Assembly: GCA_013298955.1 (NCBI GenBank)
Contig: JAAFJT010000006.1
Coordinates: 1 to 64,000 of the forward strand
Reading direction: 5' to 3'
Source of the DNA: Chitinophagales bacterium
GTDB lineage: Bacteria; Bacteroidota; Bacteroidia; Chitinophagales; Saprospiraceae
Length of the DNA: 64,000 nucleotides
In this document: one piece after another, positions 2,376 to 62,801 of the stretch
How the letters are laid out: each line of letters begins with the position of its first letter
Numbering within the stretch: position 1 is the stretch's first letter
Position numbers and translations under genes: made by a program
Notes under the pieces: generated by a model
Databases searched by the model: none
What the model saw: the letters and a program-made list of their open reading frames with translations, nothing else
What the model was told of the DNA's origin: nothing

Positions 2376-2472
2376 CGGATATTAGGGTTTTTGCTGCAAA
2401 TAGAGGTCTATTAGAAACATGAATAATGAATTCGAACTAAAACTGTAATTTTTTTGGATAGAAATGTGTACA

Positions 2473-2527
2473 AAAATTTTAATAGCGAATGGAGGATTTA
2501 AAATCCTCCATTCGCTGTTAAAATTTT
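2473..2527. terminator. 27-bp-arm hairpin between convergent genes
   Basis: An inverted repeat centred on base 2500 has arms of 27 bp with one mismatch; the core is GGAGGATTT/AAATCCTCC flanked by A/T tracts. It lies between tnpB (+) and an unknown gene (-), which fits a bidirectional terminator. It could also be the right-end structure of the TnpB element. Confidence 0.7.
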
Positions 2528-2554
2528 CGATTGCCAATATTGTATAAATTAAAA

Positions 2555-6547: not shown

Positions 6548-6698
6548 ATGGATTTACAAATAAATCATATCCAACATATTGGCATCCCCGTTACGAATAT
6601 AACGGTTTCAGAAGCCTTTTATGAGCGATTGGGTTTTTAAAAACGTCATGGCTTCCACTTTTGAGCATAAGCCCCGATGGCTAAATATTAGAATTTAA
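6548..6698 (+). pseudogene. Broken VOC/glyoxalase-family gene fragment
   Basis: An ATG 22 nt after the porter stop opens a frame reading HIQHIGIPVTNITVSEAFYE, the canonical start of a VOC-domain protein, but it stops after 30 codons at GF-stop. Moving one base within the T run restores KNVMASTFEH, the expected continuation, which then ends at 6696-6698. The remaining two thirds of the domain are missing. It was probably the third gene of the sugar operon, lost by a frameshift and 3' deletion next to the long palindrome. Confidence 0.75.
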
Positions 6699-6700
6699 TC

Positions 6701-6779
6701 AAATATTGTTCTGCAAAAAGGGTATGTTTCGGAAACCTTTAAGGTTTCCGAAACATACCCTTTTTGCAGAACAATATTT
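6701..6779. repeat. 79-bp perfect palindrome
   Basis: Two 39-bp arms match without error around base 6740 (core CGGAAACCTTtAAGGTTTCCG, extending to AAATATTGTT). It lies between the broken VOC gene and the convergent Rpn nuclease. It is far longer than a usual terminator and exact over its whole length, which suggests recent formation or active maintenance. Confidence 0.95.
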
Positions 6780-6855
6780 TGTCCTCGAAAAGCAATGCGT
6801 AACATGAGTTATTAACAACCATGTTTTTAATATTATTTTTTTTAATAAAAATATA

Positions 6856-27233: not shown

Positions 27234-27320
27234 GTTTGAATTAGATTTTTTGGATTTGTAGGATTCAATTAGGATTTATCCTAATTGAATCCTACAAATC
27301 CAAAAAATCCTAATTCAAAC
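27234..27320. repeat. Family B palindrome, copy B1
   Basis: Arms of about 41 bp begin with GTTTGAATTAG and end in the loop AATTAGGAtttaTCCTAATT, with a single-base bulge. Each arm reads as roughly 9-nt units (TTAGGATTT, TTTGGATTT, GTAGGATTC, AATTAGGAT). It lies between the PD40 gene and murA, both on the minus strand. Confidence 0.92.
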
Positions 27321-38103: not shown

Positions 38104-38242
38104 TTGTGCGGTAAGGTTTGAATTAGGATTTATGGGATTTTTAAGATTCCATTGGGATTGATTTTTAGGATTTTATCCTAAAAATCAATCCCAATGGAAT
38201 CCAAATCATCCTAAAAATCCTAATTCAAACCCTGCCGCGCAA
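38104..38242. repeat. Family B palindrome, copy B2
   Basis: The outer arms GTTTGAATTAGGAT and ATCCTAATTCAAAC match B1 and B3. The inner arms (CCATTGGGATTGATTTTTAGGA and partner) are specific to this copy but perfectly complementary; a middle section has decayed. Extra TTGTGCGG/CCGCGCAA ends make it the longest B copy. It separates the convergent GT39 and amidase genes. Confidence 0.9.
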
Positions 38243-38248
38243 ATTGGA

Positions 38249-39067
38249 TTATATAGTAACTTTACGAATATATTTTAAAGCAACCCAGCGATTATACAAC
38301 CTATCCACTCGATACCAACCACTTTTTTCTTCATAAATCCCAACTTGAATCCCTCGTTGTAATTTATCTACTATTTTTCCTGTCATATTGGGCGCATCTC
38401 GCACATTCAAAGCATCATTGCTAATAACCAAACCGCGTTGAATTTTATTTTTATTCAATTTAGGATTCGAGGGCGTATTCAATTCACCAATTTTCAATCG
38501 AACCAAAGGCAAAAAGTTTTCTTCGGCGGCTTCAGTCGTGTTACCACCAAAAAAATTCGTACCCGGACACGATTTTTGATTGGGATTCGGGCTACCAATC
38601 ATTTCTCCTGTATCCGCGTCAAACCAATGATGATACACAATTTCGTCAATCGAAGGGAATAAATCCAACTTAATACACAACATCGCATTCAATGCAATAA
38701 TCGTATCGTGTTGTTCATTCGTCATTTGGTCACCGCCCATATCGAAATTACCTAAATGTTCGATGCAAATATCGCCTTCATTCGATTTATAGATACACGC
38801 AGGGATGCGATTGAAAGGACGGCAAATGCCAATTTTCCCATCTGGAAAAGTGGTAATATTCTGACCTATCATCTCCCACCCGCGCGCAATATGCGCTGTG
38901 TGCATCGCCTCCAACAATTCAACATGATTACTACCTGTAAAACGTTTGTAATCAGGCTTCCATGTATGATGATTTTGAATCACTTCAACCGTACGTGTAA
39001 TCGGTTCTTCTGCCAACCAACTTTGAAACTCTTTGAGTGTCAATACTTTAAATCTTATAATTGCCAT
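38249..39067 (-). CDS. Zinc N-acetylmuramoyl-L-alanine amidase with SH3b domain, no signal peptide
   Basis: The N-terminal domain is Amidase_2/PGRP-like: QNHHTWKPDY gives the first zinc His, IVYHHWF the second and KSCPGTNFF the Cys ligand. The C-terminal 60 residues (ALNVRDAPNMTGKIVDKLQRG, GWYRVDRLYNRWVALKYI) are an SH3b wall-binding domain. It cleaves stem peptides from peptidoglycan. The start MAIIRFKVLTLKEF lacks any signal peptide, unusual for a cell-wall enzyme. It lies 114 nt downstream of an eCIS tape-measure gene on the same strand, so it may be cargo of, or a release factor for, an injection system. Confidence 0.82.
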   Translation of the reverse strand: MAIIRFKVLTLKEFQSWLAEEPITRTVEVIQNHHTWKPDYKRFTGSNHVELLEAMHTAHIARGWEMIGQNITTFPDGKIGICRPFNRIPACIYKSNEGDICIEHLGNFDMGGDQMTNEQHDTIIALNAMLCIKLDLFPSIDEIVYHHWFDADTGEMIGSPNPNQKSCPGTNFFGGNTTEAAEENFLPLVRLKIGELNTPSNPKLNKNKIQRGLVISNDALNVRDAPNMTGKIVDKLQRGIQVGIYEEKSGWYRVDRLYNRWVALKYIRKVTI

Positions 39068-39181
39068 AATATTTTAAGCGGGAAATGGAGTAATCTATTA
39101 AAACACTAAACGGCTGCAAGTTAACGCATTTCAATCTGTTTTCAAGGGGTGTATAACAAATTTACCAACTCACAACCATTT

Positions 39182-40489
39182 TTACCAGATAACATAGAGC
39201 GTTTCAGTCATCCAAGGCAATTTAATAACACCATAATCCCATTTAAAATAGGTTTCTAAACGGTCTGTTGCCTTTTTATCGACGTATAAAAGCCAATCAT
39301 TACCTGCTGGACTGCGGGTTAATTTGCCACGCCGTTGCAAAAAGCGTTCTCTAAATTGTCGCAAACCCATTTTTCCGAAAACAGGTTGGGATTCAATGAT
39401 GGATTCTAATAAACCATCCATCATTGTCATCGCATCCGTACTCAAAGGCAATTCTCTTTCAATCGGCTGATGTAAAGGCATGCCACACAACAATTTATTG
39501 AGCATCAATGCATATTCGGGTGCGTTTATCACACCCGTACAAAGATATTGAAAAAGGTGAATCGCTCGAAACTGCGCCGTTTTGCTCCTAAATAAATCAT
39601 TTTCCAAACAATTCAACTCCTCTGCGGAAGCAAATAAAAACGGATGTAATAAAATCAAACCCGCATTTTCGATGAAAATATCTTGTTGCGCTACTACTAA
39701 TTTCACACGGCGGTCATAACGCAAAACCCTATCGCCTAAAATCTCATTGCGCAACTCCACCATTGCCGATTCCGAATAATTTTCGCGCAAATTATGATCC
39801 AGATAGGTTTCCAAAGCTATCAACAATTTGTTGGCAGATAAGGGCGTATCCAACACCGCAATTTCAATGATTTCTGCTAATAAATCCTTTCGATACGCCC
39901 TATCCAATTGGCGAAACAAAGCTAATTCGTCCATCCAATCAAATCGAAATAATTTCAACAAGAGCTTTTCTAAAAAAGCATCTGGAAATTGCCAAACTAA
40001 CCGCCGAATACAACCTTTGTTACTACTCAATACTTGCAAAATCACTTGCTCATACTTTTGAAAATCGACTTGAAGCGCGTGTAAAATATCTTTTTCCAAT
40101 AATTTAGGTTCACGCGCCAGCCATTCTGCATGATAACCTATCTGCAAAAAACTTAAAAAAGCCGTCATCGCATTCGCTTCCCGCGATACATAACCTTCTC
40201 TATGACAATCCGACAATTGCTGCATCAAGGCTTTTTCAAAAACTTGAATACAGTGGTCTGTCAAGGATTTATCGGTTTTACGCCCAACAATGTCTCCCAA
40301 ATCGACTTCTAATCGCTCTATTTTCAGAAATTGGTTCGCAGGCATCAAGGCAGATAATCGTTTTTCCAATTTGGGTAACAACTGTTTCTGATACCAACGA
40401 CTCCAATCACGCTGCACTTGGGATGCATCTTGTTCGTTCTGCAAATCCAACTCCAATCGTTGATGATGGATAATATGTGTTTGCTGCAT
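39182..40489 (-). CDS. Short eCIS tape-measure protein
   Basis: The N-terminus (HHQRLELDLQNEQDASQVQRD, LPKLEKRLSALMP, KIERLEVDLGDI) and the C-terminus (YFKWDYGVIKLPWMTETLYVIW) match the contractile injection system tape-measure family found in eCIS clusters of Bacteroidota. In an active system this protein sets sheath and tube length. At 435 residues it is much shorter than the roughly 800-1,200 residues I would expect, with both conserved ends present, so the middle is missing or the particle is very short. It is followed by an amidase and preceded by a DUF5908 gene. No sheath, tube, baseplate or AAA ATPase gene is in the window. Confidence 0.8.
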   Translation of the reverse strand: MQQTHIIHHQRLELDLQNEQDASQVQRDWSRWYQKQLLPKLEKRLSALMPANQFLKIERLEVDLGDIVGRKTDKSLTDHCIQVFEKALMQQLSDCHREGYVSREANAMTAFLSFLQIGYHAEWLAREPKLLEKDILHALQVDFQKYEQVILQVLSSNKGCIRRLVWQFPDAFLEKLLLKLFRFDWMDELALFRQLDRAYRKDLLAEIIEIAVLDTPLSANKLLIALETYLDHNLRENYSESAMVELRNEILGDRVLRYDRRVKLVVAQQDIFIENAGLILLHPFLFASAEELNCLENDLFRSKTAQFRAIHLFQYLCTGVINAPEYALMLNKLLCGMPLHQPIERELPLSTDAMTMMDGLLESIIESQPVFGKMGLRQFRERFLQRRGKLTRSPAGNDWLLYVDKKATDRLETYFKWDYGVIKLPWMTETLYVIW

Positions 40490-40518
40490 AATGCTCTAAA
40501 TCAAGTTTGCTACGCTAC

Positions 40519-40710
40519 TCAAATCTGAACGAATTGTCGTTTTTTGATTTTGAGCCTGTCCAAGATAAGTTGGACTTGTGCGTCTGTAAGTGCTTGGGGA
40601 TATTCCGCCACAGCACGATGTATTCCTTTGTCCAGCTTGCCGCGCTCTTTCAATGGATTTTTGACAGCAGCTTTGATGACAAGTTCAAAAATTTCAATAG
40701 GCATGGTCAT
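40519..40710 (-). CDS. DUF5908-like small protein, eCIS-associated
   Basis: This 63-residue protein starts MTMPIEIFELVIKAAV, matching the DUF5908 pattern MPIEIxELVIKAxV, a small family that I know from eCIS clusters near the tape-measure gene. The remainder is basic and helical (ALTDAQVQLILDRLKIKKRQ). The start may be the second Met (40704). It ends 29 nt before the tape-measure ATG, clearly in one operon. Its biochemical role is unknown. Confidence 0.7.
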   Translation of the reverse strand: MTMPIEIFELVIKAAVKNPLKERGKLDKGIHRAVAEYPQALTDAQVQLILDRLKIKKRQFVQI

Positions 40711-40797
40711 TCCTGTTTTTAATGGTTTAGAAAAAACACGACGATAGAATCCTAAGTAGGCACAAACGGCACTTAGGTTTGCTTACGCAACAGGATG

Positions 40798-40878
40798 TCA
40801 ATAGGATTTGGCAAATACAAGGTATCTGTACAAAGTAGGATGCTCCAAAAAATCGGCTAAAACAGTTTGTAAACTCAT
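40798..40878 (-). pseudogene. 26-codon remnant upstream of the eCIS module
   Basis: An ATG at 40878 opens MSLQTVLADFLEHPTLYRYLVFAKSY and then a stop. The sequence looks like the start of a real helical protein, cut off. It may be the 5' stump of a lost eCIS gene. The ORF-track line at 40727-40909 in another frame has implausible composition (many Cys) and is a shadow. Confidence 0.3.
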
Positions 40879-41155
40879 TTTCGATGTAACAAAAAGGTGC
40901 GTATCTCAATGTATTTGTTTTCTCTAAGTGTGCGACGACGTTTTAAAGTACTTTCAAAAAGATAAAATCTCATTTATATACACAAATGTAGATAGAAAGA
41001 GTTGATATTGTCAAGTTATTTTTTACATTTTTATTTTGCTTATAATTTAAAATAAAAATCTGTTTTTTGTAAAAATTGCGAAATAATTGTCTTATAAATG
41101 ATTATAAAACAGTAAAAATGATAATTTTTATTTAAAAAAATACATTTGAACATTA

Positions 41156-41240
41156 TTTGAATTAGGATTTTTAGGATTATTAAGATTGGTTAGGATTTCA
41201 TCCTAACCAATCTTAATAATCCTAAAAATCCTAATTCAAA
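41156..41240. repeat. Family B palindrome, copy B3 (perfect 40-bp arms)
   Basis: Two 40-bp arms pair without mismatch around a TTTCA loop. The arm reads as exact 9-nt units: TTAGGATTT, TTAGGATTA, TTAAGATTG, GTTAGGATT. It follows the stop of the LytTR gene and precedes the eCIS module. The remaining gap 40879-41155 is AT-rich with no recognisable feature. Confidence 0.96.
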
Positions 41241-41245
41241 AACGG

Positions 41246-42169
41246 TTAATAAACCAAATCTAACTTGCCTACCCGCGTTGAAATATTGGTTCGGCGCAAA
41301 ATTTCTTGCGTATAAGCCGCAGGAATAAATTGTCCAACCCCTTCTAATTCCAATTTATAGCCTTGTGCATTGCCTTCAACACTCATAATTTTGTTCGTAT
41401 TGACCAAATAATTGGTATGACACCGACAATATTGAGGCACATTTTTCAAATCTTCCATCACTTTCTTCAAATTAGTGCGTATCAATACCGTCTTCACTTG
41501 CTTATTTTCACAATAATAAACGCGCACAAAATGCCCTTCTGTTTGCATAAACAAGCCTTTTTCAATCCCTAAATTGAAATTTTCTTGCGGATGCGCTCCT
41601 CGAATCACTACAAAATGGGTTGCCAAAGGATTATTGACCACCCGATTAGAATGCGAAAAAACCAAATTCGGAGGCAAAGCCCGCAATTGATGATTTAACA
41701 AACGCGCCCGCCCATCATGTTTTTCCTGCAAAAAGACCTGCCGCAAAATATCGGCAAACGTCAAGGGCAAAAAACCAAGTATAAAAACTTGCATTTGGAA
41801 AAAAGAAAAATGGGTTGCCGTTAATTCCAATTCGCCTAAGCAAACTGCCAGCAAATAACTACAAACTCCCATGAATATTAAATCTAAAGCATTGATTAAC
41901 AACACTTTATAACCTGTCCAAAATTCATCTTCCATGAATCTGGGAAATAAGATAACGCCTACACGCCGCAAAAAAACCAAAGAAAGGATACACATTGCAC
42001 CATGTGCAAAGGAAACCGATACGCGGTGTATGGGCGTATAAGTTTCTAAAAATGGCGGATTTAAGGTGAGCATGACCACAAAAACAAGGACTCCAAGAAA
42101 TATTTCCATCTGCCACCGTTTCGGATTCACCCACTTGTTCGGATATGGTTGTAATAATAAACTAAACAC
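41246..42169 (-). CDS. LytTR transcriptional regulator with membrane sensor domain
   Basis: Four to five transmembrane segments (residues about 20-160) are followed by a linker and a C-terminal LytTR DNA-binding domain: FMQTEGHFVRVYYCENKQVKTVLIR, then CRCHTNYLVNTNKIMSVEG and YKLELEGVGQFIPAAY. There is no receiver domain, so signal sensing is probably by the membrane part directly. Stand-alone membrane LytTR regulators of this layout are common in Bacteroidota. At 307 residues it is complete. Its targets are unknown; no LytTR direct-repeat sites were identified in the window. Confidence 0.85.
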   Translation of the reverse strand: MFSLLLQPYPNKWVNPKRWQMEIFLGVLVFVVMLTLNPPFLETYTPIHRVSVSFAHGAMCILSLVFLRRVGVILFPRFMEDEFWTGYKVLLINALDLIFMGVCSYLLAVCLGELELTATHFSFFQMQVFILGFLPLTFADILRQVFLQEKHDGRARLLNHQLRALPPNLVFSHSNRVVNNPLATHFVVIRGAHPQENFNLGIEKGLFMQTEGHFVRVYYCENKQVKTVLIRTNLKKVMEDLKNVPQYCRCHTNYLVNTNKIMSVEGNAQGYKLELEGVGQFIPAAYTQEILRRTNISTRVGKLDLVY

Positions 42170-46212: not shown

Positions 46213-46319
46213 AGCGAATTGGAACGCGGATGATGCAGATTGGGCGGATTTGCACGGATTTTTTTTAAAAATCCGTACAAATCCGCCCAATCTGCGTCAT
46301 CCGCGTTCCAATTGTATCG
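46213..46319. repeat. Family A palindromic element, copy A4 (short loop)
   Basis: Nearly perfect 47-bp arms; the left reads AACGCGGAT, GATGCAGAT, TGGGCGGAT, TTGCACGGAT, and the right mirrors it (ATCCGCCCAATCTGCGTCAT). There is almost no loop, and no C hairpin is inserted. It is the shortest A copy and probably shows the basic unit. Confidence 0.95.
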
Positions 46320-47309: not shown

Positions 47310-47538
47310 GATTTCAATAATTTGGATTAAAAAAATTAGATTTTTAGAATGATTCTGTTTATTCAAAAGGGTTTTTCCAACATTTGTTATTTTTATAAAT
47401 ACTTAAAATGATTAAAATGTGACATGACAATTTTGGATTTCAAAAATTAAAAGAAAAGTTCCACAAATATTTGTAAAACTTAGCGTAATTTCGCCGCTTG
47501 TTGATAAAATTTAGACTCATTTAGACGTATATTTTTTA

Positions 47539-47586
47539 GGATTCATTGTTATATTGTTGGCAATCCAACAATACAACAATGAATCC
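47539..47586. repeat. Hairpin in a divergent intergenic region
   Basis: GGATTCATTGTTATATTGTTGG and CCAACAATACAACAATGAATCC pair with one mismatch around CAAT. The gap 47310-47672 lies between divergent genes (the DUF2279 gene and rluD), so this is not a terminator; it may be regulatory or a further palindrome family. The rest of the gap is AT-rich without a clear promoter. Confidence 0.8.
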
Positions 47587-47672
47587 CAAAAATCCATCCC
47601 TAAAAAAGAGGTTTCTAAAATCATAGTCAACTAATAGTTAATGCTTAAAACAATAAAATTCATACTCTTAAC

Positions 47673-62759: not shown

Positions 62760-62801
62760 CAACTTCGTAGTCTGGAAATAAATTTCCAGACTACGAAGTT
62801 G
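62760..62801. repeat. Perfect hairpin between glgP and mnmE
   Basis: CAACTTCGTAGTCTGGAAAT and ATTTCCAGACTACGAAGTTG form a 20-bp perfect stem with a 2-nt loop in the 289-nt gap between two minus-strand genes. Nothing else is evident in the gap. Confidence 0.85.

What the first reader, a model, noticed from the sequence alone, without database searches (positions are those of the whole stretch)
38249..40878. Orphan miniature eCIS module with a signal-less peptidoglycan amidase
A tape-measure protein with both conserved ends but only 435 residues, a DUF5908 protein and a zinc amidase-SH3b without a signal peptide form one operon, with a 26-codon stump upstream. No sheath, tube, spike, baseplate or ATPase genes accompany it. 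Either this is the residue of a lost cluster or a compact unit that works with a system encoded elsewhere. A wall hydrolase that cannot leave by the Sec route fits an injected cargo or a lysis factor that frees particles.
Basis: partly seen in the sequence, partly recalled or inferred. Interest (0 to 1): 0.7.

Follow-up and report, generated by a model that had tools for sequence, protein, structure and literature searches.

The report
Orphaned injection-machine plug and ruler genes
Two intact genes for parts that sit inside a bacterial molecular syringe (the inner plug and the length ruler) survive in a genome that shows no other part of that syringe, most likely as leftovers of a lost machine; the cell-wall enzyme next to them is probably an unrelated neighbour.

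Summary
The genes are real. 39182-40489(-) is a full-length contractile-injection-system tape-measure protein (PF19268 positions 1-463, E=2.6e-83). 40519-40710(-) is DUF5908, which a profile search shows to be the Cis6 "inner protein" (Algo6, PDB 7aef; tCIS 7b5h; PVC 9qgm). 38249-39067(-) is a signal-less Amidase_2-SH3 protein. The unit is orphaned: this 98%-complete genome gave no eCIS sheath, tube, baseplate-J-type or Pvc15-type AAA gene, only a T6SS-iii locus. Of 80 family genomes with a tape-measure match, 77 also have a tube and two more have baseplate and AAA genes; this genome has none. "Miniature" is wrong: tape measures of 401-461 aa sit among other eCIS genes in eleven relatives. The amidase is very likely a bystander: its 11 nearest homologues lie away from eCIS genes, none of those checked has a signal peptide, and they do not co-occur with tape measures. 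Best reading: the two tube-lumen genes Cis6 and Cis14 outlived a lost eCIS. Both frames are open and a consensus-type promoter precedes them; present function is unproven. Side finding: relatives carry compact sheath-tube-VgrG cassettes ending in a tape-measure C-terminal domain only, under purifying selection.

The parts
40983..41014 (-). Bacteroidota-type promoter match TTG-N21-TACATTTG, 270-300 bp upstream of DUF5908
   Evidence: perfect consensus match; 18 such in the 64-kb window against 6 in shuffled sequence; not shown to be active
40798..40878 (-). 26-codon open frame ('stump'), no detectable homologue
40519..40710 (-). DUF5908 = Cis6-type inner/plug protein, 63 aa
   Evidence: PF19265 26.4 bits; profile of it and relatives hits Algo6 7aef_t E 1e-15, 7b5h_AL E 2e-14, PVC 9qgm_6A E 3e-4
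39182..40489 (-). CIS tape-measure protein (Cis14/Afp14 type), 435 aa, complete
   Evidence: PF19268 1-463, 281 bits; AlphaFold2 mean pLDDT 82.6, folded N and C domains joined by a flexible linker around 215-266
38249..39067 (-). signal-less zinc amidase (Amidase_2) with SH3_3 domain, 272 aa; probably an unrelated neighbour
41157..41240 (.). long palindrome (40-pair hairpin) between the LytTR gene and the unit, probable terminator
   Evidence: -57.7 kcal/mol, z -15
38118..38229 (.). long palindrome between converging glycosyltransferase and amidase genes, shares outer arms with the one above
   Evidence: -65.3 kcal/mol, z -12

Best explanation
The DUF5908-tape-measure pair is the remainder of an extracellular contractile injection system (eCIS) that this lineage has lost. 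The two genes encode proteins of the tube lumen: Cis6, an inner/plug protein solved inside three CIS particles, and Cis14, the tape measure that sets tube length. Deletions took the genes that normally lie before, between and after them and brought the two into one short operon behind a Bacteroidota-type promoter. Both reading frames are still complete. With no tube, hub or sheath they cannot act as ruler and plug of an eCIS, so their present role, if any, is not the ancestral one. The amidase downstream is an independent signal-less amidase. Shown: gene identities, failure to find partner genes, abnormal adjacency, intact frames. Inferred: the deletion history, the promoter, loss of ancestral function.
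For: Full-length PF19268 match and Cis6 identity from three solved structures. Own genome: no sheath, tube, baseplate-J family or eCIS AAA (best 5e-14 against 1e-220 in its congener). In the relatives survey DUF5908 lies next to the tube where both share a contig, and about 15 kb from the tape measure where those two share a contig. 77 of 80 tape-measure genomes have a tube, two more have baseplate and AAA. Other relatives show cut-down CIS loci, down to a lone tape-measure C-terminal domain, so stepwise reduction happens in this family.
Against: No eCIS fragments remain beside the pair, so the deletion history is not seen directly. Two complete open frames with a good promoter match are more than expected of an old relic. 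The tape measure keeps 77% of conserved positions, inside the range of tape measures from clusters. No near relative was found to show the intact ancestral locus.
Confidence: 0.62

Rival explanations
1. The pair is kept by selection for a new role without an eCIS, for example two lumen proteins that now bind each other or a cell component.
For: Both frames complete although the C-terminal domain branch is long (1.69 changes per site against a median of 0.7), conserved positions largely kept, consensus-type promoter, confident fold. Lone tape-measure C-terminal frames occur in G062 and G178.
Against: The divergence may have accumulated while an eCIS was still present. No second genome with the pair was found.
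Confidence: 0.17
2. A full eCIS exists in this species but lies in the unassembled part of the genome, and the pair is an extra set.
For: The assembly has 204 contigs and is 97.95% complete. The congener G001 has an eCIS.
Against: A whole 25-35 kb cluster with its own tape measure, tubes, baseplate and AAA would all have to be missing; the pair lies inside an 88-kb contig among unrelated genes.
Confidence: 0.09
3. The pair works with the genome's T6SS-iii: Cis6 or Cis14 enters the Hcp tube or sits on the VgrG hub.
For: T6SS-iii genes (TssC end, TssD, VgrG, gp25/TssE, an Ntox15 effector with Tdi1-type immunity) are on contig C192, the only contractile machine found. Cis6 sits inside CIS particles, and VgrG is a related hub.
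Against: T6SS i-iii are reported to lack Cis6 and Cis14 (PMC12210884). The pair is not near the T6SS genes.
Confidence: 0.05
4. One reading: the signal-less amidase is an injected cargo or a lysis factor of a compact eCIS unit.
For: Same strand, 114 bp downstream; Amidase_2 and SH3 domains.
Against: Eleven homologues (40-46% identity) are not beside eCIS genes and none of those examined has a signal peptide; co-occurrence with tape measures 2 of 11 against 77 of 286, Fisher p 0.73; no particle genes found in this genome.
Confidence: 0.03

Closest known systems
eCIS tape-measure protein (Afp14/Pvc14/Cis14; Pfam PF19268)
   Same: Full-length match; conserved N and C domains with a variable middle; length like several relatives in eCIS clusters
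   Different: No tube, sheath, baseplate or AAA genes found in the genome; on a long branch
Cis6 inner/plug protein (Algo6, Pvc6, Asl3322; Pfam PF19265 DUF5908)
   Same: MPIEI-ELVIKA start and lysine-rich end; profile match to three solved chains
   Different: Next to the tape measure instead of between the tube and LysM genes; score just under Pfam's cut-off
Signal-less Amidase_2 plus SH3 amidases of this bacterial family
   Same: 40-46% identity, no signal peptide, SH3 domain(s)
   Different: One SH3 match in 272 aa here against longer open frames of 330-370 aa in relatives, several with a second SH3 match; here it happens to follow a tape-measure gene

Membership tests
eCIS gene cluster | sheath gene | tested here: not met
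   PF04984, 0 matches in own genome; a relative's eCIS sheath scores only E 1e-6 against this model, so a weak sheath could be missed
eCIS gene cluster | tube protein (gp19 type) | tested here: not met
   PF06841, 0 in own genome, present in 94 of 298 family genomes
eCIS gene cluster | baseplate wedge (J-type) protein | tested here: not met
   alignment A1 finds it in G001, G296, G298, not in own genome
eCIS gene cluster | Pvc15-type AAA ATPase | tested here: not met
   best 5e-14 in own genome against about 1e-200 or better in three relatives
eCIS tape-measure protein PF19268 | full-length profile match above cut-off | tested here: met
   281 bits against 27.8, positions 1-463
eCIS tape-measure protein PF19268 | sets the length of a tube | not testable with these tools
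   needs particles; no tube gene found here
Cis6 / DUF5908 | profile match to solved Cis6 chains | tested here: met
   7aef_t E 1e-15, 7b5h_AL E 2e-14, 9qgm_6A E 3e-4 with alignment A4, which includes the window protein; window protein alone 26.4 bits, cut-off 27.7
eCIS cargo (amidase) | encoded in or beside eCIS loci | tested here: not met
   homologues in 11 relatives lie away from eCIS genes

The most novel reading that the evidence does not exclude
Two CIS lumen proteins, the plug Cis6 and the tape measure Cis14, form a self-standing two-gene unit kept by selection without any eCIS, perhaps acting on the T6SS-iii or in a cell function, which would show that these parts do something apart from measuring and plugging a tube.
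Probability: 0.12. Interest if true: 0.75.

Novelty: new member of a known kind. Interest (0 to 1): 0.36.

Why it matters
It gives a clear case where the inner parts of an injection machine outlast its shell. If the pair proves to be expressed and conserved, it would be a direct test of whether Cis6 and Cis14 have a role outside particle assembly. It also corrects two likely annotation errors: short tape measures are ordinary in this family, and a neighbouring signal-less amidase should not be called eCIS cargo.

Tried and rejected
Miniature tape measure: rejected, lengths of 401-461 aa occur among eCIS genes in eleven relatives. Amidase as phage endolysin: no relative in phage or viral-contig collections; only three distant plasmid hits. 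Stump as remnant of an eCIS gene: no match. Eroded eCIS genes on the contig: none. Synteny with the congener through the LytTR gene: no orthologue in G001, uninformative. Solved structures by sequence or fold for the tape measure: none. Same pair in viral contigs: none. Rfam matches on the palindromes are below every gathering score and are taken as chance.

Full report
What is there. Reading down the minus strand: a consensus-type Bacteroidota promoter (41014-40983), a leader of about 270 bases, DUF5908 (40710-40519), after 29 bp the tape-measure gene (40489-39182), after 114 bp an amidase gene (39067-38249). The unit is framed by two long palindromes at 41157-41240 and 38118-38229. The tape measure matches PF19268 over its whole length with 281 bits. 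DUF5908 scores 26.4 bits, just under the Pfam cut-off, but fits a profile from relatives, and a profile made from it and its relatives finds the solved inner proteins of AlgoCIS (Algo6), the cyanobacterial CIS (Asl3322) and PVC, each present as three chains in its structure entry. DUF5908 is therefore Cis6, called spike plug in PMC12210884.

Is it orphaned. The assembly has 4.68 Mb in 204 contigs and is 98% complete. Searches for sheath, tube, baseplate-J family and eCIS AAA found nothing of eCIS type, and no eCIS fragment remains elsewhere on the 88-kb contig. A gp25 match on contig C192 belongs to a T6SS-iii locus with TssC end, TssD, VgrG and an Ntox15 effector with Tdi1-type immunity. In 298 genomes of the same family, 80 have a tape-measure match over cut-off; 77 of them have a tube match, and two more (G296, G298) have baseplate and AAA genes. 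The window genome has none of these. G062 comes closest: a lone C-terminal tape-measure frame and only a weaker tube match (7.8e-15) elsewhere. In the order-wide survey G053 (83% complete) also lacks tube and J matches and has only a weak general AAA match, but its tape measure lies on a 7.4-kb contig.

Is it miniature. No. Tape measures of 401-461 aa lie among baseplate genes, and usually toxin or AAA genes, in G086, G241, G178, G216, G222, G285, G177, G220, G079, G210 and G150. AlphaFold2 gives two folded domains and a floppy linker around 215-266, with no long ruler helix; no solved structure resembles it.

Is it decayed. No frame break. It keeps 77% of positions conserved in 29 others, inside the range of tape measures from other loci. 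Its C-terminal domain has the third longest branch of 50. Divergence of that size without selection would have left stop codons, so most of it built up under constraint (inference); whether constraint continues cannot be told without close relatives.

Adjacency. In the relatives where tube and DUF5908 share a contig, DUF5908 sits beside the tube, and where DUF5908 and the tape measure share a contig they are about 15 kb apart, with the baseplate genes between. No other tape-measure locus held here has DUF5908 beside it. Direct adjacency here implies at least one large internal deletion plus loss on both sides, or a rearrangement. Notably the two kept genes are both counted as accessory in PVC (PMC11495950).

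The amidase. It has Amidase_2 and SH3 domains and residues fitting the zinc site (H in NHHTW, H in YHHW, C in SCPG; sequence reading). Homologues at 40-46% identity occur in 11 of 297 other family genomes, with open frames of 330-370 aa, lacking a signal peptide in those examined and standing beside unrelated genes. They do not co-occur with tape measures (2 of 11 against 77 of 286, p 0.73). Lack of a signal peptide is thus a family trait, not evidence of injection.

Side finding. Several relatives hold a compact locus sheath-tube-VgrG, with a PAAR-like gene visible in several, ending in a 170-190 aa frame that is only the C-terminal domain of the tape measure; no gp25, LysM, baseplate-J or AAA match in the 8-20 kb read (L185, L186, L191, L183, L081, L188; L187 has only sheath-tube before it). 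Within one genus the sheath, tube and VgrG genes show dN about 0.09-0.20 against dS 0.4-1.1. Lone C-terminal frames stand in L189 and L190. Reduction of CIS loci down to a tape-measure domain is thus recurrent in this family, which makes the relic reading of the window more natural and raises the question of what that domain does.

Verdict. Observation partly confirmed; interpretation half right (lost cluster), half not (amidase cargo). Most likely a relic pair; a kept, new function is possible but unproven.

Noticed in passing
L185:9215-14091, L186:8748-13663, L191:10276-15188, L183:9734-14223, L081:10093-17350, L188:3904-7087, L187:10109-12994: Compact CIS loci in relatives: sheath-tube-VgrG (PAAR-like gene in several) ending in a tape-measure C-terminal domain only (170-190 aa; broken in L191), with no gp25, LysM, wedge or AAA match nearby; sheath, tube and VgrG under purifying selection in one genus. 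L187 lacks VgrG, L188 ends at a contig edge. Some of these genomes also hold a full eCIS.
   Followed up: partly
L189:9456-10004, L190:2002-2514: Lone C-terminal tape-measure frames (182 and 170 aa) with no other CIS gene around them.
   Followed up: partly
L074:1-7348 (own contig C192): T6SS-iii locus cut by the contig start: TssC end, TssD, VgrG, gp25/TssE, a DUF4280-Ntox15 effector and Tdi1-type immunity.
   Followed up: partly
window 2471-2529, 6698-6782, 27239-27314, 38118-38229, 41149-41247, 46217-46313, 47533-47592, 62760-62801: Long near-perfect palindromes (stems of 20-48 pairs): ten of at least 18 pairs in 64 kb against three in 197 kb of relatives. Some share outer arms (AATTAGGATTTTTAGGAT) but have different, still self-complementary centres.
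   Followed up: partly
window 40711-40982: Leader of about 270 bases between promoter match and DUF5908 with two short open frames (32 and 26 codons) that match nothing.
   Followed up: partly
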